The notes under the pieces are model-generated. The model saw only the letters and a list, made by a program, of their open reading frames with translations. It was not told the DNA's origin and ran no database searches. Made by a program: the position numbers and the translations under genes. From an uncultured Schlesneria sp. (GTDB lineage: Bacteria; Planctomycetota; Planctomycetia; Planctomycetales; Planctomycetaceae), in NCBI GenBank assembly GCA_903834925.1, contig CAILLA010000245.1:1-64000 (forward strand): a stretch of 64,000 bases of DNA, given 5' to 3'. This document shows positions 3,342-57,590 of this stretch, piece after piece. How positions within the stretch are numbered: the stretch's first letter is position 1; each line of letters starts with the position of its first letter.

Positions 3342-4457
3342 TTACGTCGACGAAACGAATGTCTGAACGGGATCTTTTTCGTTCTGACTCGCATTGACCA
3401 TCAGGCCCGGAAAATGCTGTTTCAGTTGTTTTGCAAGAGTTTCCATCGAAAATCGCTCGGTAGCATAGTGGCCTGGAAGGATCATTCCGAGACCAAGATC
3501 GCGAGCTTCAAGGCACGCATGAAAACGTGCCTCACCTGTTAGCAATGCCTGACAACCACAGCGATGAGCATCCCTCAGAAATTCAGCAGCCGCTCCGCAC
3601 GCAATCCCAAGCCGATAAATCGTTTGAGAAGGTTCTCCGACAAATTGGACATTCGGCACCCGTAACCGATTAGCAACGACACGATTTAACTCGTCCAATG
3701 AGATTGGTTTGGGAAGGATTCCGTATCGTCCTGCACCGGCAGCATTTGCGACCGCTTTGACGGAAAAAACATCGACTGCAGGCTCTTCATAAGGGTGAGC
3801 CATTCGTAACAGTGCAAGCGCGTGATCCAGACGTTTCGAGGGACAAACGACTTCAACTCGCACTTCTGGCACCTGCTCGAGTTGACCCGATTTGCCGACA
3901 GCAGGATTCGTCGAATCGGACCCGAAAAAGGTTCCCGTGCCGTGAAGATTAAAACTGCAATGTCGATAATTTCCGATCACTCCCGTGCCAGCGTCCCATA
4001 ATGCCTTCCGAACAGCATCCAGATGTGATTCGGGTACGAATGTCACCAGCTTCACCTGATCAGCGACGGCTCGCTGTCGCAATGGCGCAATCTCTTTCAG
4101 TTCAAACAGTTCCGCCAACTGCTGATTAATTCCCGAGGTCGAGTTATCCCAAGCAGTGTGTGGACTATAGACGGCAATTCCATTGCGAAGCAGCGTCAGT
4201 AACATTCGCCCTTCTGGTGTGGCTGCCGTAATTTGTTTGATTGGTTTGAACATGACGGGATGATGTGTCACGACAAGTTCTGCGCCGAAAGCCGCCGCCT
4301 CGGCAGCAACGTCATTTGTCAGGGTCAGACACGTCATCGCTTTTGTCATTTTGGCCGCGTCATCACCAAGCAACAATCCCACATTGTCCCAATCCTCTGC
4401 CAGGTTGAGCGGTGCCAACGCTTTCAAATGCTCGCAAACGTCTCTAACAGTCGTCAT
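3342..4457 (-). CDS. Nif3-like dinuclear metal-centre protein (DUF34)
   Basis: A 371-residue member of the Nif3/DUF34 family. The N-terminal part shows the metal-ligand signature WDNVGLLLG, then LVVTHHPVMFKPI with the paired histidines and the PHTAWDNS motif. The C terminus carries GHYATERF with the remaining His and Glu ligands. The length includes the inserted middle domain found in longer bacterial members (RVEVVCPSKRLDHAL onward). GTP cyclohydrolase-like and metal-insertion roles have been proposed, none firm. The chosen start, MTTVRDV, is preceded by AAAGGA at good spacing; the frame is open to 4544. Confidence 0.9.
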   Translation of the reverse strand: MTTVRDVCEHLKALAPLNLAEDWDNVGLLLGDDAAKMTKAMTCLTLTNDVAAEAAAFGAELVVTHHPVMFKPIKQITAATPEGRMLLTLLRNGIAVYSPHTAWDNSTSGINQQLAELFELKEIAPLRQRAVADQVKLVTFVPESHLDAVRKALWDAGTGVIGNYRHCSFNLHGTGTFFGSDSTNPAVGKSGQLEQVPEVRVEVVCPSKRLDHALALLRMAHPYEEPAVDVFSVKAVANAAGAGRYGILPKPISLDELNRVVANRLRVPNVQFVGEPSQTIYRLGIACGAAAEFLRDAHRCGCQALLTGEARFHACLEARDLGLGMILPGHYATERFSMETLAKQLKQHFPGLMVNASQNEKDPVQTFVSST

Positions 4458-4599
4458 GGAAATCATTCCTTTGGAGGGATAACACGCTGCCAATGAGGCA
4501 GATCGTCGTTTATAATCGGGCAAGTATCGGTGAACTGAAATCACCCGGCTTTGTTGTTTCTTACGGTCGTTAAATCACTTTGCTTTTGGAACATTGGTC

Positions 4600-49835: not shown

Positions 49836-50000
49836 ACCCGGAATCCTTTCCGCAAAGCGGTTTTTCAATAGGCAAGATCCACCACACGGCCATTCATCTG
49901 GCTGTACGCGGCAGGGAGAATGATTCGCAAAAAGGAATTGTAACACTCAGGCACGAGGACTCAATCAACAGACGCGAACCCGCATTCACGTTCGGCATCT

Positions 50001-50026
50001 CGTTACCAAGCTCCAGCTTGGTAACG
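50001..50026. repeat. 11-bp perfect hairpin
   Basis: CGTTACCAAGC (50001-50011) pairs with GCTTGGTAACG (50016-50026) around TCCA. It lies upstream of dnaE in an otherwise empty 320-bp stretch, and has no T-run on either side. Confidence 0.6.
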
Positions 50027-50157
50027 CCGGTCTTCGAAGCTCCGTTTCGCGAATCGCCAGTCACCCCGAAATGAAATGAAGCATGTACCGAGCGATTCCC
50101 AGGGACGTTTTCTTCTCCTTCCCAAATCCCGTCAGCTCCGAATTGCAGTTGTCCTGA

Positions 50158-50442
50158 ACCGCTGACAATCGATATTCTGATCGCTATGAACACGTTAGAT
50201 CTGACACCACTGCGAAACTCGCCTCGACTCCCCGAGCACTCGGTGTCCGCGAATACTGGCTGGTGGATACCGACGCGGAAAACATCGAGCAATACCATAT
50301 TGAAAACAACTCATTTCAATTGCTGCTCAAATCAAATTCGGGCGAAATCGCCAGCCGAATCATCAAGGGTTTTCAAATCCCGATCCGGTCAATCTTCGAT
50401 GCGGCTGAGAACCTCACGACGCTGAAACGTCTTCTTGATTGA
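50158..50442 (+). pseudogene. Uma2-family (DUF820) nuclease, C-terminal remnant
   Basis: An open stretch of 94 codons without a usable start reads SDRYEHVRSDTTAKL, then ALGVREYWLVDTDAENIEQY and GFQIPIRSIFDA before a TGA. This is the C-terminal half of Uma2-type PD-(D/E)xK proteins, including the conserved GVREYWLVD. The N-terminal part with the first catalytic residues is gone, and a stop precedes it at 50155. Such truncated Uma2 genes are common debris next to mobile regions. It marks the left border of the DGR island. Confidence 0.7.
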
Positions 50443-50448
50443 CGCATC

Positions 50449-50520
50449 CAACGCAACCCCACTGCCCCCGTGGCAGTGGTTAACGGGCCTTTGCACCAGC
50501 AGGCGTCAACGTTCATTGAT
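50449..50520. repeat. Repeat family C, copy 1 (left bracket of RT gene)
   Basis: A 72-bp sequence identical, base for base, to 51985-52056. It contains the hairpin CCACTGCC-CCCGT-GGCAGTGG followed by TTAACGGGCCTTTGCAC. The 350 bp from here to the RT stop hold no gene; I see only a short CACGAAT-type repeat at about 50565. Confidence 0.9.
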
Positions 50521-50870
50521 AATGCTGAAATACAAATTCAAAACATGAAGAAAAAGAGGTTTGACCACGAATCGCACGAATCTTACGAATAAGAAATGGC
50601 GGCAGGCCCAAGTCATCGAGAATGGGCAGTATCAATGGTAATGCGGTTGACGAACAATCGTTTACGGACCACGGATTCAATCAAATAGAGCGATGAAACC
50701 GACTCAGGCGGCCAATAAATCAACGGCAATCAAATTTGTTCGTATGCCGGTAGGCATGACAGCGATTAGCCGGTGGTTGAGCGTGGCGACACCACCGGAA
50801 TCGGTAGCACCAACAAGTTGAGAATTCCGACGGGATTCCAGATTCTTCCGTCGGAGTGGTGAGACGCGAG

Positions 50871-51965
50871 TCATTCCAATTTGTCTTTTGACGACTCATG
50901 ATGATTTTGTTGGAGTTGAAATTTCGCATCACCGAGAATGTCGGCCCGTAATTTGTCTGTATTCGCGTGCCCGGCATGGCCGATCCAGCTGATGATCCGA
51001 CGGCGGATCGACTGCAGTTCGATTTCGCCCGCAGCATACGAAGCTTGCATTTGACGTAATCGTGCCCGCATCCGAACCAAATTGGACACAGGAAGACGCC
51101 GATATTCAGGAAAAATTCGAAACCCAAGAAATTTTGTTCCTTGTGATGTACGTGAGATCACGCACTTTTTTGTGTGCAGCCGCAGTCGCAGCGATTCCAG
51201 AAACCACCGAGAACGATCCCGAATCAAGTCGAGGCGTTTCGGGTCATCGCCAAAAATTGCAAAATCGTCTACGTAACGAAGATATCCGCGTGCCCCAAGC
51301 TGTTCGGTGACGAAATGATCGAACGGGTTTAGCAGGACATTTGCCAGAAACTGGCTGGTTTGATTCCCAATCGGCAATCCACGTTTCCGTTCGATGGCCG
51401 TAAACAAGTCGTCGCCTGGGAACCAGCCATCGACTGTCTCTTGAGGATTCGAATGATCGATCAATTGATCGATCAGAATCATCACATCGGGATCTTTGAT
51501 TTTCCGCCGGACGGTACGTTTGAGAACGTCGTGGTCAACAGTGGGAAAGAATTTACGCAGATCACACTTCAGCTCGTAACGGGACCGCTTCGCAAAGTAT
51601 TGGAACCGGTTGATTGCGGCATGTGTCCCTTTTCCCTTACGGCATGCGTAACTGTCATGAATAAAGGTCGTTTCAAAAATCGGTTCGAGGATATTGCACA
51701 AGGCGTGATGGACGATCCGGTCGCGAAACGGTGCGGCACTGATCATCCGGCGTTTTGGTTCGAAAATCTCGAACGTCCTGTATGGTCCAGGTCGATAAGT
51801 CCGTGACTCCAGTTCATCCTGAAGTTGAACCAGATTCCGTTCGCGATCAAACAGAAACCGCGCGATATTTGCCGGGTCACGTTTCCCCCGTGACGCATTA
51901 CCCACCGCAACCATCAGGTTGCGAAAGCTCACCAGTTCAGACCACAGATTTCCGTATCGTTTCAT
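50871..51965 (-). CDS. Diversity-generating retroelement reverse transcriptase
   Basis: A 364-residue RT. The usual QGxxxSP of motif 4 is replaced by IGNQTSQ (residues 199-205), the known mark of DGR RTs. The catalytic box is YVDD (231-234) in RYVDDFAIFG. Earlier motifs are RRMISAAPFRDRIVHHAL and CDLRKFFPTVDHDVL. No maturase X, HNH or integrase domain is present, so this is not a group II intron protein. It should copy the TR RNA with errors at adenines and write it into the VR of the kinase-FGE gene. It sits downstream of TR and the Avd-like remnant on the same strand, bracketed by identical repeats. Confidence 0.93.
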   Translation of the reverse strand: MKRYGNLWSELVSFRNLMVAVGNASRGKRDPANIARFLFDRERNLVQLQDELESRTYRPGPYRTFEIFEPKRRMISAAPFRDRIVHHALCNILEPIFETTFIHDSYACRKGKGTHAAINRFQYFAKRSRYELKCDLRKFFPTVDHDVLKRTVRRKIKDPDVMILIDQLIDHSNPQETVDGWFPGDDLFTAIERKRGLPIGNQTSQFLANVLLNPFDHFVTEQLGARGYLRYVDDFAIFGDDPKRLDLIRDRSRWFLESLRLRLHTKKCVISRTSQGTKFLGFRIFPEYRRLPVSNLVRMRARLRQMQASYAAGEIELQSIRRRIISWIGHAGHANTDKLRADILGDAKFQLQQNHHESSKDKLE

Positions 51966-51984
51966 CTGATTCTCGAAAACAATT

Positions 51985-52056
51985 CAACGCAACCCCACTG
52001 CCCCCGTGGCAGTGGTTAACGGGCCTTTGCACCAGCAGGCGTCAACGTTCATTGAT
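51985..52056. repeat. Repeat family C, copy 2 (right bracket of RT gene)
   Basis: Identical over 72 bp to copy 1, in the same orientation, 20 bp upstream of the RT start codon. Similarity continues weakly for about 18 bp more (GAAATNCAAATTC). Confidence 0.9.
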
Positions 52057-52078
52057 CGGCGGAAATGCAAATTCGTAG

Positions 52079-52123
52079 TGCAAAGGCCCGTTAACCACCC
52101 CCACGGGGGGGGTGGGGTTTCGT
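52079..52123. repeat. Repeat family C, copy 3 (inverted)
   Basis: TGCAAAGGCCCGTTAACCACC... ending GGTGGGGTTTCG, the reverse complement of the family core. It faces copy 2 head to head, 22 bp apart, so together they form a larger palindrome between the RT gene and the Avd remnant. Confidence 0.85.
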
Positions 52124-52153
52124 TTTGCGTTTTACGCAGTTTCGTTTTTCGTT

Positions 52154-52360
52154 CTACGCTGTGCGGATCGAGTTGATCCAGAGGCCGAGGTTCTGGCCGA
52201 CTTCGTTGACGAGCCGGCTGGCCGAACCGCAGCTCTCAATGGACAGGCATTTAATGTCTTTCGCCGTCCGAAATTCGAACCGCAGTTGTTCCAGTTCCAG
52301 ATTGCAGCGTTGTAATAGACGACTTTGCACAACCGACGCGGGAGACGAGGTGGACTGCAC
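52154..52360 (-). pseudogene. Avd-like four-helix-bundle protein, C-terminal remnant
   Basis: A 68-codon frame that can start at GTG 52360 and reads LLQRCNLELEQLRFEF, then RTAKDIKCLSIESCGSASRL and VNEVGQNLGLWINSIRTA. This matches the last two helices of the four-helix-bundle (IVP/Avd) accessory proteins of DGRs, which usually exceed 110 residues. The first two helices are absent from all frames up to the TR, and a stop precedes the GTG. Avd binds the RT and TR RNA in characterised DGRs, so its loss could mean an inactive element or use of an Avd encoded elsewhere. The position between TR and RT supports the call. Confidence 0.6.
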
Positions 52361-52404
52361 TCAGGCACGCCCGGACGGTCCTTGAACCGCCCGGTTCTGG
52401 CAAA

Positions 52405-52428
52405 GATCGATCAGCGAACTGATCGATC
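52405..52428. promoter_or_regulatory. 10-bp stem, 4-nt loop hairpin just 3' of the TR
   Basis: On the minus strand GATCGATCAG-TTCG-CTGATCGATC, a perfect 10-bp stem with a tetraloop, begins 12 bases after the TR homology ends. In the Bordetella phage DGR a similar hairpin lies just downstream of the VR and promotes retrohoming; here it is next to the TR. Confidence 0.6.
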
Positions 52429-52440
52429 GGCGGAGTACTC

Positions 52441-52570
52441 ACGCCGCACGACTAACGGGCAATCCGAAAACCAATATTGTTGTTACGGTTGTCAGGAGTG
52501 TTTCTGTTACGATTAGCAGACCGCGCGTTCCTGGCATTGTTGTTCCAGGAGCCACCACGCAGCACACGAT
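52441..52570 (-). repeat. DGR template repeat (TR)
   Basis: Homologous over 130 bp to the VR at 53227-53356. Read in the VR frame it encodes [19 protein letters not shown] and then an Asn-rich stretch to GFRIAR and a stop, dominated by AAC/AAT codons, the classic TR composition that lets adenine mutagenesis reach many amino acids. It has no start codon or ORF of its own. Both ends are near-identical to the VR; differences concentrate in the Asn-rich core. Confidence 0.92.
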
Positions 52571-52715
52571 TCCCTCAATCTCCCAGATCCCCGACGGCAG
52601 GATCTATTAACGTCTTAACACGAACACGATGGAAAAGATACCAACCCAGTCAAATTCGTTTGTCTAAGGAGGGATTTGGAAATCGTCGAGAATTGTACAC
52701 AGGATTGAATGACAC

Positions 52716-53053
52716 GCTTTCCACCTTGGCTCGTCCAGGTGGGAGCAAATTTGGAAACCAGTACCAAGCCCCTTCCCTAACGATTGTGTTCTTGCTTTCC
52801 ACCTTGGCTCGTCCAGGTGGAAGCAAATTTGGAAACCAGTACCAGCCCCTTCCCTGACGATTGTGTTCTTGCTTTCCACCTTGGCTTGCCCAGGTGGGAG
52901 CAAATTGGGAAACCAGTACCAGCCCCTTCCCTAACGATTGTGTTCTTGCTCCCACCTGGGCAAGCCAGTGTGGAAAGCAAGGGAGGGGTTGGGGTGTGCT
53001 GTGTCGTCTGGTTTCCAAATTTGCTCCCACCTGGGCAAGCCAGTGTGGAAAGC
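52716..53053. repeat. 77-bp tandem repeats with inverted end copies
   Basis: Three head-to-tail units of 77-78 bp start at 52716, 52794 and 52871, each beginning GCTTTCCACCTTGGCT and containing CCAGGTGGGAGCAAATT. Two inverted partial units (GCTCCCACCTGGGCAAGCCA) start near 52948 and 53023. The block lies between the stop of the variable protein gene and the TR. Frames running through it repeat the same peptide and are artefacts of the repeat. Confidence 0.85.
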
Positions 53054-53226
53054 TTGTCACCCATCACGCATGCGAATCCCGACTTTTTCCATATGTTCCC
53101 TTTCTCCCGGACACGCGAACCGGAAACATCAAAAAAACAACTCGCGCGCCGGGCTTTCGCCCGTCGATCAATACAGAGAAGAGTAAAGAAGGGTAAAAAA
53201 TGAGTAAAGAAACATACAGAGTCCTC

Positions 53227-53356
53227 ACGCCGCACGACTAACGGGCGACCCGAAAACCATTAACGCGGTAATGGTTGACGGGAGAGTCCCAGTTGCGATT
53301 GGCAGACCTCGCGGTCCAGGCATGGCTGTTCCAGGAGCCACCACGCGCCACACGAT
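53227..53356 (-). repeat. DGR variable repeat (VR)
   Basis: The last 130 bp region of the kinase-FGE gene, including its stop codon at 53238 and 11 bp beyond. Compared with the TR there are 24 differences: 15 at TR positions that are A on the coding strand, replaced by C, G or T, and nine at other bases. The 3' end (stop codon and GTCGTGCGGCGT) is identical, as expected for the initiation-of-mutagenic-homing zone. Confidence 0.9.
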
Positions 53357-56192
53357 ATTCTGATCCTTTTTCGACTATGGGATCCTTAGTGATTCCGCTA
53401 CGACTGGAATACGCTTTTTCGTCGAAGACGTCGTAACACCATTCATAGATGTTGCCGCTCATATCGGACAATCCGAATTTGTTCGGTGAATACGAACCGA
53501 CCTTTGTCGTTCGCCAAAGATACTTCCCCTTCACGCTTGTGCCGTACGGATAATTTCCATCGATGTTTGCATTGTCGCCATTCAACGTTGATCCAAAGAA
53601 GAAGGGGGTGGTTGTTGTGGCACGTGCGGCATATTCACGCTGAGCCTCCGTCGGTAACCGCCAGCCAATGCCACCGAGAATTGTGACTTTGGCCGATTTG
53701 ATTGAATCACCCTCTCGTACGATGTCGGTCATCCGATAGTGAGGAGACACACCGTCCATTTCGCTTGCCTTGATACAGAATTCGACCGCATCAAACCATG
53801 AAATGCTCTCGACCGGAAACTGGCCGGTGTCCAACCCCTTGACCTCGTCTTTGCCGCCCCCCGTTACCGAAAAATAACTGGGATTCGTCCCCATCACCCG
53901 TTGGTATTGTTCCTGCGTAACCGGGCAGATCCCCATCTCAAACTTCGAAATCTGAACAGTGTGCTGCGGACCTTCGTACGACGAACGATTGGTCTCTGAT
54001 GCCGGTGAACCCATGTCGAACAACCCGGCGGGAATTTCGGCGACTATGATTCCCGTCTTGTTGCTAAAGGTCGAAACGGGGTCTGCTTTGAGGAGCTGGA
54101 ATTTTTTCTCCGCGTCGGCTCCCCCGCTTCCCGCCACGGCGATCAATTGTTTGACCTGGTCCCGGGCCGCAGTCAGTTCCCGATTGGCCTGATCCAATTC
54201 TTTGTTCTTCTTCTCAAAGTCTTGAACAGTTTTCGCGTGCGTGATCCGCAATTCGCCGAGCGATTCCGAATCACGCTTCAGCCTGGCGTTCTCGGACGTC
54301 AGGGTCGTCTTCGCCGATTCCAGACCGGCGACTTTTCCTTCCGCCTCTTTTCTTAACTTCTCTTCCTGTGTCAGTTTTGCCGTCGCCTCGATCACTTTCC
54401 TGCCATCTTCGAGGCGTTCCTCCGTCAGCTTCGAAATCTGACCATTCAGCCTGGAGATCTCTGCGATCTTTTCCGTCACCAACTGATTAACGCGTACCAC
54501 GTCCGCTTTGAGTTGTTCTTTCTCACGTTCAACGGCGGCGAGCGTTTCCTGATTCCCCTTCAGGCGTTTTTGACGCTGCGCCTCGGTTTCATTGTTGTTT
54601 TCAGGCTTCAGCCAGTCATTCAACTGGTCAATCCGCTGACCGTACTGCAAGCCGGTTTCCTTCCAGTGTCCTTCATTCAACAATCGTCCCGCACCTTCTT
54701 CCGCCGAACGGACGATCTGTTTGAATCCATCCTTCTGCCGGACCTCGTCATCCACCGATTTGACCAGCCGCTCAAACTCGATCCGCCGTTGTACTGCCGG
54801 GGCTGCCTCGGTATTTGCTCGAGCCAGTGCCGCCAGATCCCCGTGCAGTCCGGCCACGCGTGACTGCAAACCGTCAATCCGCCCACCCTGGACATCCTCG
54901 GCCAATGCCAGAAACTGTTTGACAAGCTGGTCCTTTTGCGCTTGAACTGCGGGCAACGACTGCCAGGGTGATTCATTCAGTACTTTTCGTAACGGGTCAA
55001 GGATCGACTCGGCCCATTCAATATCGTGCGCAGCCGTTATCGCCTTCGCGAACGATTTGATCTTTTCGGTCACGGTGACGTCATTTCCGCTGGCAGCACC
55101 AGCAATCTGGGCGACACCCGGATGTTTCACCATGTTTCCGAGGCCATCGAATTGACGCTGAAGCGACGTGAGTTCCCTGAGGTCACCCAGCCGCCGTTCT
55201 TCGTTCCACTTCCACCAGCCAACAGCACCAAACGATCCCACCAACAGGACCCAGCACATCGTCGTGAGGAGTTGCTTGCGAACTTGCTGGTTCCGATCCC
55301 GATTGACTCGCCATTGACGAATCGCGTCGGCGGCATCACCGGCCCGTTCGTAAACCAGTGGATCTTTATCCTTACGCGAATCCGGGGTTCGACCTGACTT
55401 GATCAGGACATCGCAGACACATGACGGAACGCCCGCCTGCTTGAGGACGTTTCCCCATTCGGAATCGTCCTTCGGTGCATCGCGATCGATCAGGACCAGG
55501 AACGCAATCTGAGCCGCACCGCGCAGATCATGCCAGCGATCTGGTCGTTTTCCCTTGTAGACGACTTCGTCATCACCGTAACCCGGCGTACCACCGCGTA
55601 CACTGACGCCACGAGTTCCATAACCAGGATCAAGCCGACAGGACAAACCGAAATCGACCAGTCGAATCCGATCCTCTTTTTGTACCATCATGTTTTCGGG
55701 CTTGGGATCGCCGTGGATCAGGTTGCAGTCGTGCAATTGCTGGTAGGCTCGAAACAACTTTTCCACCAATTGGATCCGATGATCGAGATCGAGCTTACGT
55801 GGCTCTTTCACATAACTGTGAATTTCGCGTCCGTTGAGGAATTCCATCAAAACGAACGGTTGAATCCCGTCCCGTTTCACATGATTGATGTAGGCGGGGA
55901 CCAGGTCGCGGGGAACGTATTCCGAAGCAAGCACCCGGCATTCGCGGTCAAACGCATGAATGTGATCCTCGTTGGTTGGGTCGAGCATGATTTTGACGAA
56001 CCCGACCGCGTTCGATTCCTGATGCCGCACCTCGAACCCGGCACCGAATCCACCCTTCCCCTTCTGGCCACCATGGATCCGCCAGCCACTCTGTTCAATC
56101 GCGTTGATCGTCGCAGGCCAGATCTGAAAATGATCCGGCTTCAGGCCGATTTGAGCATGCATATTCGGCAAGTCGGAAGAAATGGGAGCCAT
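53238..56192 (-). CDS. DGR variable protein: Ser/Thr kinase / TM / coiled coil / FGE-lectin domain
   Basis: A 984-residue fusion. Kinase domain, residues about 35-290: Gly loop GKGGFGAG, VAIK-type VKIM, catalytic LIHGDPKPENMM (HGD in place of HRD) and DFG in RLVDFGLS. A transmembrane helix (CWVLLVGSFGAVGWW) follows near 315. About 350 residues of coiled coil precede a C-terminal FGE-sulfatase/C-type-lectin domain from about 720: FDMGSPASETNR, CPVTQEQYQRVMG, WRLPTEAQREYAAR, LSDMSGNIYEWCYD and ARGGSWN. The final 38 residues are the VR. The lectin-like outside diversifies ligand binding while the kinase signals inside. GAGGG precedes the ATG. Confidence 0.93.
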   Translation of the reverse strand: MAPISSDLPNMHAQIGLKPDHFQIWPATINAIEQSGWRIHGGQKGKGGFGAGFEVRHQESNAVGFVKIMLDPTNEDHIHAFDRECRVLASEYVPRDLVPAYINHVKRDGIQPFVLMEFLNGREIHSYVKEPRKLDLDHRIQLVEKLFRAYQQLHDCNLIHGDPKPENMMVQKEDRIRLVDFGLSCRLDPGYGTRGVSVRGGTPGYGDDEVVYKGKRPDRWHDLRGAAQIAFLVLIDRDAPKDDSEWGNVLKQAGVPSCVCDVLIKSGRTPDSRKDKDPLVYERAGDAADAIRQWRVNRDRNQQVRKQLLTTMCWVLLVGSFGAVGWWKWNEERRLGDLRELTSLQRQFDGLGNMVKHPGVAQIAGAASGNDVTVTEKIKSFAKAITAAHDIEWAESILDPLRKVLNESPWQSLPAVQAQKDQLVKQFLALAEDVQGGRIDGLQSRVAGLHGDLAALARANTEAAPAVQRRIEFERLVKSVDDEVRQKDGFKQIVRSAEEGAGRLLNEGHWKETGLQYGQRIDQLNDWLKPENNNETEAQRQKRLKGNQETLAAVEREKEQLKADVVRVNQLVTEKIAEISRLNGQISKLTEERLEDGRKVIEATAKLTQEEKLRKEAEGKVAGLESAKTTLTSENARLKRDSESLGELRITHAKTVQDFEKKNKELDQANRELTAARDQVKQLIAVAGSGGADAEKKFQLLKADPVSTFSNKTGIIVAEIPAGLFDMGSPASETNRSSYEGPQHTVQISKFEMGICPVTQEQYQRVMGTNPSYFSVTGGGKDEVKGLDTGQFPVESISWFDAVEFCIKASEMDGVSPHYRMTDIVREGDSIKSAKVTILGGIGWRLPTEAQREYAARATTTTPFFFGSTLNGDNANIDGNYPYGTSVKGKYLWRTTKVGSYSPNKFGLSDMSGNIYEWCYDVFDEKAYSSRSGITKDPIVEKGSEYRVARGGSWNSHAWTARSANRNWDSPVNHYRVNGFRVAR

Positions 56193-56319
56193 CGAAAAAC
56201 CCTCAAATCAGAGGCAATTAAGAAAATAAATGCGAAGAATTGTGAACCACGAAAAACACGAAATACGCGAAACAATTCAGTCAAGGCGAGCCGGGGTGCG
56301 TTAGCCCCCGGACTCTTTT

Positions 56320-56381
56320 TTTCGTGTATTTCGTGTATTTCGTGTATTTCGTGTATTTCGTGTGTTTCGTGTGTTTCGTGG
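56320..56381. repeat. 9-bp TTTCGTGTA microsatellite
   Basis: About seven units of TTTCGTGTA/TTTCGTGTG lie upstream of the kinase-FGE gene. The inverse sequence (CCACGAAAAACACGAAATAC) occurs at 56247-56268, so the region can fold into a long imperfect hairpin around AGCCGGGGTGCGTTAGCCCC (56289-56308). Confidence 0.75.
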
Positions 56382-56465
56382 TAAAAACTCTTTGTCTTCT
56401 TTCCTTAGAATAATTTGTTTTTGCACGAATAACGTTCACCGATACTCACTAATGCTAATTCCTAG

Positions 56466-56510
56466 GGCAAAGGCCCGTTAACCACCCCCGCAGGGGGGCT
56501 GGGGTTTCGT
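56466..56510. repeat. Repeat family C, copy 4 (inverted)
   Basis: GGCAAAGGCCCGTTAACCAC, then CCCCGCAGGGGGGCTGG and GGTTTCGT. It abuts the 3' end of the sigma-factor gene and may serve as its terminator. Confidence 0.8.
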
Positions 56511-56511
56511 T

Positions 56512-57225
56512 TTATTTCTGACGGAGTCGCTTTTTCGCCGCTTCGGCGATTCGATAAAGCTGGTCTTTTTCGAGGTCGAGTTGATCCGCGATTTCGTCGT
56601 AAGTCATGCCGTCGATGTAACGATGTTGCAAAACCAGCGCCATGACTTGTTCGTCAGCGGTCCCTTCCTTCCAACGTTCCAAAGTCGCCAACGCTTGTTC
56701 GAACGAAACATCGTTGTATTTTTCAAAGTGGACTTGTCGCTGGTCGGCAAATGCTGCGATGTCATCGACGGCCTGCGGAAAAAGTTTCTTTCGCCGAATG
56801 TGGTCGAGAACCTGATTGCGCATCACAACCGACGCCCATGAGCGAAGCTGTTTTGCCGTCTTTGCCCGCCAGAACGCGTCGTTGCGTTCGGCAAGAACCT
56901 TGGCAAAGAAGTCGTTCACTACACTGGTATAACGAACACTGACATCCGCTTGCCGATTCGCCAATCCCTTTCCAAATACTTTGATCAAAACTGGTCGTAA
57001 CGCTTCGCGAAAATGTTCGTCAACTAGGGCAATGATCTCGTCTTCCAACTTCTTGATGTTCTGCTTGAGCGAGGCGAAAGTCGCCTGATCTTTTGGTTTC
57101 TCGACCGGCTGCGGGAACTGTTCGAGTTGTTCGGTCAGGCTGGTGTGTTGCTCGAGCAACCGAATCAGCCGCTTTTCGTCGTTAGGCTGATCAGGTTCGG
57201 GCATTAAAAGTTTCGCAGTCGACAT
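56512..57225 (-). CDS. ECF-type sigma factor
   Basis: A 237-residue sigma-70-family protein. Region 2 lies around LRPVLIKVFGKG...SVRYTSVVNDFFAKVL and KQLRSWASVVMRNQVLDHIRRKK, region 4 at MTYDEIADQLDLEKDQLYRIAEAAKKRL, a helix-turn-helix. The N terminus holds about 60 extra residues with coiled-coil character. The layout fits the planctomycete ECF families often encoded next to membrane kinases, as here directly upstream of the kinase-FGE gene. I infer that it is activated by, or drives expression of, that kinase. AAGG precedes the ATG. Confidence 0.87.
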   Translation of the reverse strand: MSTAKLLMPEPDQPNDEKRLIRLLEQHTSLTEQLEQFPQPVEKPKDQATFASLKQNIKKLEDEIIALVDEHFREALRPVLIKVFGKGLANRQADVSVRYTSVVNDFFAKVLAERNDAFWRAKTAKQLRSWASVVMRNQVLDHIRRKKLFPQAVDDIAAFADQRQVHFEKYNDVSFEQALATLERWKEGTADEQVMALVLQHRYIDGMTYDEIADQLDLEKDQLYRIAEAAKKRLRQK

Positions 57226-57251
57226 CAGAATTAACCTTGATATGAATGAGA

Positions 57252-57294
57252 CGAAACCCCACCGCCCCCGTGGCGGTGGTTAACGGGCCTTTGC
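57252..57294. repeat. Repeat family C, copy 5
   Basis: CGAAACCCCACCGCCCCCGT then GGCGGTGGTTAACGGGCC. The stem CCACCGCC/GGCGGTGG differs from copies 1 and 2 (CCACTGCC/GGCAGTGG) by a compensatory base-pair change. Confidence 0.8.
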
Positions 57295-57400
57295 CTTAGC
57301 GGTTGAATCTTATCGGCGAATGACGGTTTGCGGTATTTTTATCTTATCGGTGAATGACAACGATGACTGGTGCAAAGGCCCGTTAACCACCCCCGCAGGG

Positions 57401-57590
57401 CAACGCGGTGAAGAATTTTTCTTCGGGAAATCATGGGTTCGAACGAAGTCTTGTGCCACTGAATGACCGTCTTCGGTCACTCAGTGGCTTTCAATCGCGT
57501 GTTTGCAGATCGAAGACACTGCGTCGGAGAAGACTCCGATGCAGTGGCACCTCACGTCACTACCGTTTTGAAAAACCCTTCACGGCGGTG
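57401..57590. mobile_element. 190-bp MITE-like insertion splitting repeat C copy 6
   Basis: The ends are imperfect 21-bp inverted repeats: CAACGCGGTGAAGAATTTTTC (57401-57421, written here less its last base is the left end) and the complement of GAAAAACCCTTCACGGCGGT plus G (57570-57590), 17 of 21 matching. They are flanked by the 9-bp direct duplication CCCGCAGGG (57392-57400 and 57591-57599). Removing the element and one duplicate restores an intact family-C repeat (57371-57612). It carries family-A copy 5 inside and no gene. Confidence 0.75.
57453..57550. repeat. Repeat family A, copy 5 (inside the MITE)
   Basis: Full-length 98-bp copy from GTGCCACTG to CAGTGGCAC. The stems here are CACTGAATGACCG/CGGTCACTCAGTG and CACTGCGTCGGAG/CTCCGATGCAGTG. 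Confidence 0.85.

What the first reader, a model, noticed from the sequence alone, without database searches (positions are those of the whole stretch)
50871..56192. A diversity-generating retroelement with a matched TR/VR pair
The 130-bp TR (52441-52570) and VR (53227-53356) share both ends exactly or nearly so and differ at 24 sites; 15 are at coding-strand adenines of the TR (about half of its adenines), nine at the ~99 other bases. The TR reads as an Asn-codon-rich frame ending in the same stop. The RT has the DGR-specific IGxxxSQ motif. All parts lie on one strand within 6 kb.
Basis: partly seen in the sequence, partly recalled or inferred. Interest (0 to 1): 0.92.

Follow-up and report, generated by a model that had tools for sequence, protein, structure and literature searches.

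The report
Broken diversity-generating retroelement in a planctomycete
This is a real gene-diversifying retroelement from a planctomycete bacterium, but half of its helper protein gene and half of its guide RNA appear to be missing, so it is probably a recently silenced copy rather than a working one.

Summary
TR and VR (minus strand) differ at 24 of 130 sites: 15 of 31 TR adenines, 9 of 99 other bases (p=6e-6). The RT groups with DGR RTs (100/100). The target is a kinase-FGE protein.

(1) A second VR in trans (contig C278: 18/31 A, 4/99 non-A). (2) Only the C-terminal half of avd is present. (3) In relatives a strongly covarying RNA follows TR. Here it stops inside a hairpin and runs into avd within about 6 bp. 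Of the 10 planctomycete loci among 80 fetched relatives, 9 have full avd (the tenth is cut by its contig), 10 have the whole RNA, and in the 8 with a called pair TR lies behind RT. (4) The cis VR's 9% non-adenine mismatch compares with a median of 1.1% in 71 relatives' pairs.

Best reading: a DGR by descent, crippled by fusion of its TR-spacer RNA to avd and probably silent, though its RT looks intact and six relatives with no detected avd keep biased pairs. The kind is known; the spacer-RNA model is the useful by-product.

The parts
50871..51965 (-). DGR reverse transcriptase, 364 aa, intact frame
   Evidence: RVT_1 2.7e-24; best PDB sequence match 8ub7, 'Reverse transcriptase' (E 5.4e-55), which I recall as the BPP-1 DGR RT; groups with DGR RTs 100/100; 0 deviations at 39 widely conserved columns, 5 at 105 columns invariant in nine planctomycete relatives
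52154..52327 (-). C-terminal half of avd (the mechanical ORF starts at 52360; homology begins at about 52327)
   Evidence: NF033474 profile 53-103 of 104, E 3.9e-11, 43.2 bits, below the cut-off of 80; bAvd 53-106 of 107, also below its cut-off; place 52175-52327; aligned with full Avd of L075-L077
52327..52333 (-). junction between spacer RNA and avd
   Evidence: TR-spacer homology to L075/L076 ends at about 52331-52334; avd homology begins at 52327
52333..52402 (-). 5' half of the conserved spacer RNA behind TR (first hairpin, GTGCAGTCCA, TCCCGCGTCG)
   Evidence: model R1, 56.7 bits, E 2.6e-13, well matched only to about model position 73
52405..52428 (-). hairpin GATCGATCAG-TTCG-CTGATCGATC between TR and spacer RNA
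   Evidence: sequence, folded
52433..52570 (-). template repeat (TR) with its end GTGAGTACTC
52700..53060 (.). array with five exact cores of a repeat (60 exact core matches in the genome, 0 in the reversed control)
53150..53163 (-). hairpin CGGGC-GAAA-GCCCG downstream of VR1
   Evidence: 8% of 2000 mononucleotide shuffles also hold such a hairpin
53219..53356 (-). variable repeat VR1 (cis) with end GTGAGGACTC
53238..56192 (-). target gene, 984 aa: protein kinase, middle part with a weak SMC-like match, FGE-sulfatase (C-type-lectin type) domain
   Evidence: Pkinase 2.9e-18, FGE-sulfatase 2.2e-46; SMC 8.6e-5; best PDB match 2y3c, Treponema denticola variable protein 1
56512..57225 (-). ECF-type sigma factor upstream of the target, same neighbour in G009
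   Evidence: TIGR02937 2.3e-13

Best explanation
This is a diversity-generating retroelement by descent. In the ancestor the order was probably target/VR - avd - RT - TR - spacer RNA, and the RT with Avd copied TR with errors at adenines and wrote the copy into the C-type-lectin end of the kinase-FGE target and of a second FGE protein in trans (contig C278). In this lineage TR with the 5' half of its spacer RNA came to lie in front of the C-terminal half of avd. The simplest route is a tandem duplication or permutation of the cassette followed by one deletion from inside a spacer hairpin to about avd codon 52. That removed the N-terminal half of Avd and the 3' half of the spacer RNA, so mutagenic retrohoming has most likely stopped, while the RT gene still looks intact. 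Shown: TR/VR statistics, truncation of avd and spacer, the junction, the contrast with relatives. Inferred: the past mechanism, the loss of activity, the order of events.
For: TR/VR1 15/31 A versus 9/99 non-A; TR/VR2 (C278:17240-17379) 18/31 versus 4/99, p=1.8e-10. RT split from 13 other RTs at 100/100, sisters L075-L077 at 100/99. avd half only, whereas 9 of the 10 planctomycete loci among the 80 relatives have full avd, the tenth (L084) starting inside RT. Spacer RNA whole in all 10, covariation in all three helices; in the window it breaks off in the second of them. TR lies behind RT in the 8 of those 10 with a called pair. Same neighbours in G009. Non-A mismatches of VR1 exceed those of all but 2 of 71 pairs in 62 relatives; the 2 are cross-pairs at a locus with two TRs. 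No Avd over the cut-off elsewhere in a 99.99% complete genome. Passages read: inactivating bRT, Avd or TR in the reconstituted BPP-1 system drops repair to ~1e-9, and the BPP-1 spacer recruits bRT-Avd (PMC12875486).
Against: RT shows no decay. In 25 of 80 relatives TR precedes an avd on the opposite strand and then RT, and in 1 (L123) the window's order occurs on one strand, so order alone is not abnormal. In 11 of 80 relatives my scan found no avd; at least 4 of the 11 lie close to a contig end, but 6 of the 11 (L115, L116, L125, L127, L136, L143) have adenine-biased pairs, so Avd of this type is not universal, or my Avd profile misses distant ones. TR and VR ends and the target hairpin are present. 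Draft assembly of 307 contigs with repeats near by; no reads. No activity data.
Confidence: 0.8

Rival explanations
1. A working DGR: the half Avd and half spacer RNA suffice, or Avd is supplied in trans or not needed, and the TR still rewrites VR1 and VR2.
For: RT intact; TR, VR ends and hairpins behind the VRs present; VR2 has only 4/99 non-A mismatches; 6 relatives without detected avd keep adenine-biased pairs.
Against: Two TR-specific non-A changes (positions 56, 62) are in neither VR, so neither has been rewritten over that stretch since. VR1 carries 7 more of its own. No Avd over the cut-off elsewhere. Avd and template RNA are required in BPP-1 (passages).
Confidence: 0.1
2. Assembly artefact: a chimeric join made the spacer-avd fusion, and the real genome holds an intact cassette.
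For: A repeat array lies about 150-480 bp from TR, another repeat family between half avd and RT, and members of the first family sit near several contig ends; draft of 307 contigs.
Against: The junction (52327-52333) is in neither repeat. A wrong join in the array could not restore avd, since TR lies between array and avd. Outside the window only a 35% RT and no second copy of this TR with spacer or of this avd half was found in the genome.
Confidence: 0.08
3. Not a DGR: two FGE gene ends made alike by gene conversion, beside an unrelated group II-type RT.
For: FGE C-termini are alike in general; an FGE gene on C22 reaches 66% to TR.
Against: RT clade and best PDB match; bias at adenines only in the TR-to-VR direction; match continues past the stop; such pairs beside related RTs.
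Confidence: 0.01

Closest known systems
Bordetella phage BPP-1 DGR (mtd/VR - avd - TR - spacer - brt; annotation)
   Same: RT 37% identical over 93%; TR/VR adenine bias; end with a TR/VR mismatch; hairpin with GAAA loop behind VR; avd homologue
   Different: avd only half; spacer RNA truncated; spacer model R1 does not match BPP-1; the VR hairpin has 5 bp and lies about 55 bases behind VR1, against 7-10 bp and 4-34 bases in phage DGRs (passages of PMC3240598); kinase-FGE target on a chromosome; second VR in trans
Degenerate DGR loci of Thiohalocapsa PB-PSB1 (PMC10907252; passages read)
   Same: Conflict-type targets, several DGR loci per genome, loci with missing parts, MITE-like repeats beside degraded parts, VRs matched by a TR elsewhere
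   Different: Planctomycete; here the loss is a fusion of spacer RNA to avd, and both VRs have non-adenine mismatches to TR
DGRs of Schlesneria-group and other planctomycete MAGs (G009/L076, L075, G014/L079, G010/L081)
   Same: RT 55-66% identical; TR and spacer 5' half 76-77% identical over about 240 bases to L075 and L076; same sigma-target neighbours in G009
   Different: They have full avd, whole spacer RNA and TR behind RT

Membership tests
Diversity-generating retroelement (by descent) | RT of the DGR clade, IGxxxSQ motif | tested here: met
Diversity-generating retroelement (by descent) | TR/VR pair with mismatches at TR adenines | tested here: met
   VR1 p=6e-6, VR2 p=2e-10
Diversity-generating retroelement (by descent) | VR at the C-terminal end of a C-type-lectin-type target | tested here: met
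   FGE-sulfatase 2.2e-46, 2y3c best PDB match by sequence; own fold model too poor to use
Diversity-generating retroelement (by descent) | VR/TR mismatch at the 3' end (IMH/IMH*) | tested here: met
   AGGAC in VR versus AG[T/C]AC in TR here and in G009, G010, G014
Diversity-generating retroelement (by descent) | hairpin behind VR | tested here: inconclusive
   5-bp stem with GAAA loop behind VR1; found by the same rule in 10 of 13 VR flanks looked at, not in L076, L079, L083; 8% of shuffles of the VR1 flank have one
Working Avd-type DGR | complete Avd | tested here: not met
   profile 53-103 of 104 only
Working Avd-type DGR | complete spacer RNA behind TR | tested here: not met
   breaks off in the second modelled helix
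Working Avd-type DGR | VR identical or nearly so to TR outside adenines | tested here: not met
   9/99 in VR1, 4/99 in VR2; median of 71 relatives' pairs 1.1%
Working Avd-type DGR | VR variation within the population | not testable with these tools
   one genome per species; no reads

The most novel reading that the evidence does not exclude
The element still works: a DGR that needs only the C-terminal half of Avd and the 5' half of the spacer RNA, fused head to tail, or whose Avd is pieced together from two loci. The N-terminal 44 codons of another avd lie behind a SIR2-NACHT-FGE target on contig C81.
Probability: 0.05. Interest if true: 0.75.

Novelty: new member of a known kind. Interest (0 to 1): 0.42.

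Why it matters
It shows what can be checked beyond the TR/VR match before a DGR is called active: Avd length, completeness of the spacer RNA, and non-adenine mismatches as a clock of the last rewriting. The spacer-RNA model matched right behind TR in DGRs of several phyla, so it could help to find TRs and to tell whole DGRs from broken ones. The genome also offers a natural case of DGR decay next to a second, apparently whole DGR and three orphan VRs.

Tried and rejected
Considered and rejected: (a) a frame-shifted rather than truncated avd: all three minus-strand frames of 52130-52600 and 52560-53240 were read and show no Avd N-half to my eye, nor did the profile search. (b) A full Avd in trans: four hits in the genome, none over the cut-off: the window's half, the C81 N-half, and two in C44. 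One C44 hit spans the whole profile at 22.6 bits with an in-frame TGA and looks (recalled) like the S23/IVP four-helix family. The same profile also gave weak hits in 6 of 14 control genomes. (c) The C81 and C140 VRs as current substrates of this TR: 12 to 14 non-A mismatches of 78. (d) Rfam: eight matches at E up to 1 in 49900-57500, all below their gathering scores and all miRNA or sRNA models. (e) AlphaFold model of the FGE end: mean pLDDT 54.5, not used, no fold search made. (f) Phage origin: 169 phage records match the RT, all under 60% identity, best of the 15 listed 39%. (g) A shorter RT query against phages added nothing. (h) Paper searches for a described spacer-RNA family or for degenerate DGRs: the listings showed no paper on such an RNA family; only open-licence papers are held. 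Passages of PMC8144416 were seen and not used.
Full report
What is there. The window lies in an unnamed 9.02-Mb genome of 307 contigs, 99.99% complete. The nearest named relatives of its RT are planctomycete MAGs, two of the first five labelled Schlesneria paludicola. All parts lie on the minus strand: target gene 53238-56192 with VR1 at its end, then a repeat array, TR, a piece of spacer RNA, half an avd, and RT 50871-51965.

The pair. Reading the VR as the template gives no bias (3/19 against 21/111). The match goes on 8 bp with one T/G mismatch; the pair AGGAC (VR) versus AG[T/C]AC (TR) recurs in G009, G010 and G014. The target has kinase and FGE-sulfatase domains, and its best solved relative is Treponema denticola variable protein 1, 2y3c. 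The RT is nearest to 8ub7 among solved structures (that this is the BPP-1 DGR RT is recalled). In a tree of 33 RTs, 20 taken as DGR RTs stand apart from 13 others at 100/100, and the window RT joins L075-L077 at 100/99. Of the 20, 17 are relatives' loci, 16 of them with an adenine-biased pair (L110 has none called); the rest are the two RTs of this genome and BPP-1 brt. The 13 others are weak matches that no family scan named; 12 carry a PQG or PEG...SPxL motif where DGR RTs have IGxxxSQ (typical of group II intron RTs, recalled), and the thirteenth is a 125-aa piece. BPP-1 brt and the C229 RT have long branches.

A second target. A search of the genome with TR finds seven places: TR itself, VR1, C278:17240-17379 (84%), weaker ones at C140 and C81, one at the TR of the C229 DGR, and a general FGE match at C22. 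The C278 place is the 3' end of a 526-aa FGE protein and differs from TR at 18/31 adenines and 4/99 other bases (p=1.8e-10). So one TR fits two genes, the second on another contig.

A clock. Of the non-adenine sites, 7 are peculiar to VR1, 2 to VR2 and 2 to TR (positions 56 and 62); at none do all three differ. At 56 and 62 the TRs of L075-L077 have the VR base (alignment), so TR changed there and neither VR was rewritten over that stretch afterwards. VR2 was probably rewritten later than VR1. In 80 relatives a scan found 71 TR/VR pairs in 62 loci; the median non-A mismatch is 1.1%, 28 pairs have none, 65 have at most 2, 5 reach 4/99 and 2 reach 9/99. These 2 are cross-pairs at L128, where another TR fits the same VRs with 17/17 and 20/20 mismatches at adenines. 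The scan demanded a strong adenine bias, so badly decayed pairs could be missed; VR1 passed it.

Half an avd. NCBIfam's Avd model matches only at 53-103 of 104 and Pfam bAvd at 53-106 of 107, both under the curated cut-offs. No N-half was seen in the frames near by. The same-genus genomes G009, G010 and G014 have full Avd over the cut-off; G005's full-length match is under it. TR lies behind RT in the 8 with a called pair, and the spacer RNA lies behind RT in all 10. G009 has the same neighbours: kinase-FGE target, sigma factor and a further gene in the same order. Against the weight of this: 11 of the 80 loci show no avd in my scan; at least 4 of those lie close to a contig end, and 6 have adenine-biased pairs.

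The spacer RNA. Behind TR the relatives share a structured stretch. An alignment of 10 (window left out) gives 26 pairs in three helices, 93.8% of cells paired, 21 pairs changed on both sides, covariation score 0.884 against 0.280 in shuffles and at most 0.221 when partners are slid. I chose the structure by eye from these sequences, which favours it over slid versions. A covariance model searched over 79 sources, the 10 training loci not among them, found 18 loci at E up to 1e-3 besides the window. In 15 of the 18 a TR had been marked (14 by adenine bias, L059 by self-match), and in all 15 the match is on the TR strand behind it: it begins 4-39 bases past the TR end in 14, and in L088 a partial match begins 134 bases on. 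They include Verrucomicrobia, Bacteroidota, Deltaproteobacteria and an Armatimonadetes MAG (titles). A refitted alignment of 27 keeps the covariation (fitted to the model, so leaning to it). BPP-1 is not matched, and a refitted model matched few of the Patescibacteria-type loci at E up to 0.1 (L135, L146, L134). No Rfam family matched the window's copy; the relatives' copies were not run against Rfam. Function is inferred from BPP-1, where the spacer recruits bRT-Avd and primes cDNA (passages of PMC12875486).

The junction. In the window the model fits to about position 73 and then fails: the second helix lacks its 3' arm, GGCCAAA and the last hairpin are gone. TR plus spacer is continuous with L075 and L076 over 238 and 242 aligned bases (77%, 76%) up to about 52333; avd homology begins at 52327. 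So the RNA and the gene are broken at one point, as one deletion would do if TR-spacer stood before an avd. How it came to stand there (tandem duplication, permutation) is inference. TR ahead of avd and RT is not strange in itself: 25 of 80 relatives have it with avd on the other strand, and L123 on one strand.

Is it dead? For: Avd halved, spacer halved, VR1 and VR2 not rewritten since TR last changed. Against: RT intact, 0 of 39 widely conserved columns changed and 5 of 105 columns invariant in nine planctomycete relatives, where those relatives themselves show 1-13; VR ends and a hairpin behind each VR present. I take this as recent loss. Activity itself could not be tested.

Rest of the genome. 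The C229 locus is a second DGR: RT, an ORF with an HRDC-like look (recalled), TR, and two FGE-type targets with 16/17 and 12/16 mismatches at adenines (only the first target was domain-scanned). Three VRs have no TR of their own in the assembly: behind a SIR2-NACHT-FGE and a TIR-NACHT-FGE gene on C81 and behind a 289-aa FGE-like ORF on C140 (by eye). They vary among themselves at 31 of 106 columns, 22 of them at positions of the window TR's 28 adenines (p=1e-10), so a sister TR probably wrote them once and is lost or unassembled. The SIR2-NACHT-FGE one is followed by the first 44 codons of an avd and then by the repeat.

Known or new. Degenerate DGRs with repeat-linked loss of parts and VRs matched in trans are described for Thiohalocapsa (passages of PMC10907252). 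The element is a new member of a known kind. The spacer-RNA family may be undescribed; my searches cover Rfam 15 on the window and open-licence papers only.

Noticed in passing
L075-L082, L084, L086 behind TR (e.g. L075:7263-7410); window 52333-52402: A structured RNA with three covarying helices directly behind TR in DGRs of several phyla; no Rfam match for the window's copy. Ends in a hairpin with GGGCTGGTAG...CGAACGTCCC in many copies.
   Followed up: yes
L017 (C229:5000-14000): Second, apparently whole DGR in the same genome: RT 35% identical, HRDC-like ORF (recalled look), TR and two FGE-type targets, one on each side.
   Followed up: partly
L016 (C81:3444-3605, 4317-4517) and L015 (C140:400-600): Three orphan VRs at the ends of TIR-NACHT-FGE, SIR2-NACHT-FGE and a 289-aa FGE-like ORF; no TR found in the assembly; variable columns coincide with the window TR's adenines.
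   Followed up: yes
L016 about 4117-4245, minus strand: First 44 codons of an avd behind the SIR2-NACHT-FGE VR, followed by the repeat family seen in the window.
   Followed up: partly
window 52700-53060; 60 places in the genome: Repeat TTTCCACNNTGGCTNGNCCAGGTGG, often in arrays at about 77-bp steps, both orientations, also near several contig ends.
   Followed up: partly
window about 50447-50530, 51985-52125, 56470-56510, 57255-57300, 57370-57400: Second palindromic intergenic repeat family, around GTTAACGGGCCTTTGC, seen by eye; copies lie between half avd and RT.
   Followed up: no
L018 (C44:88-719): Duplicated small four-helix-like gene (S23/IVP-like, recalled), one copy with an in-frame TGA; weak hits to the Avd model.
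   Followed up: no
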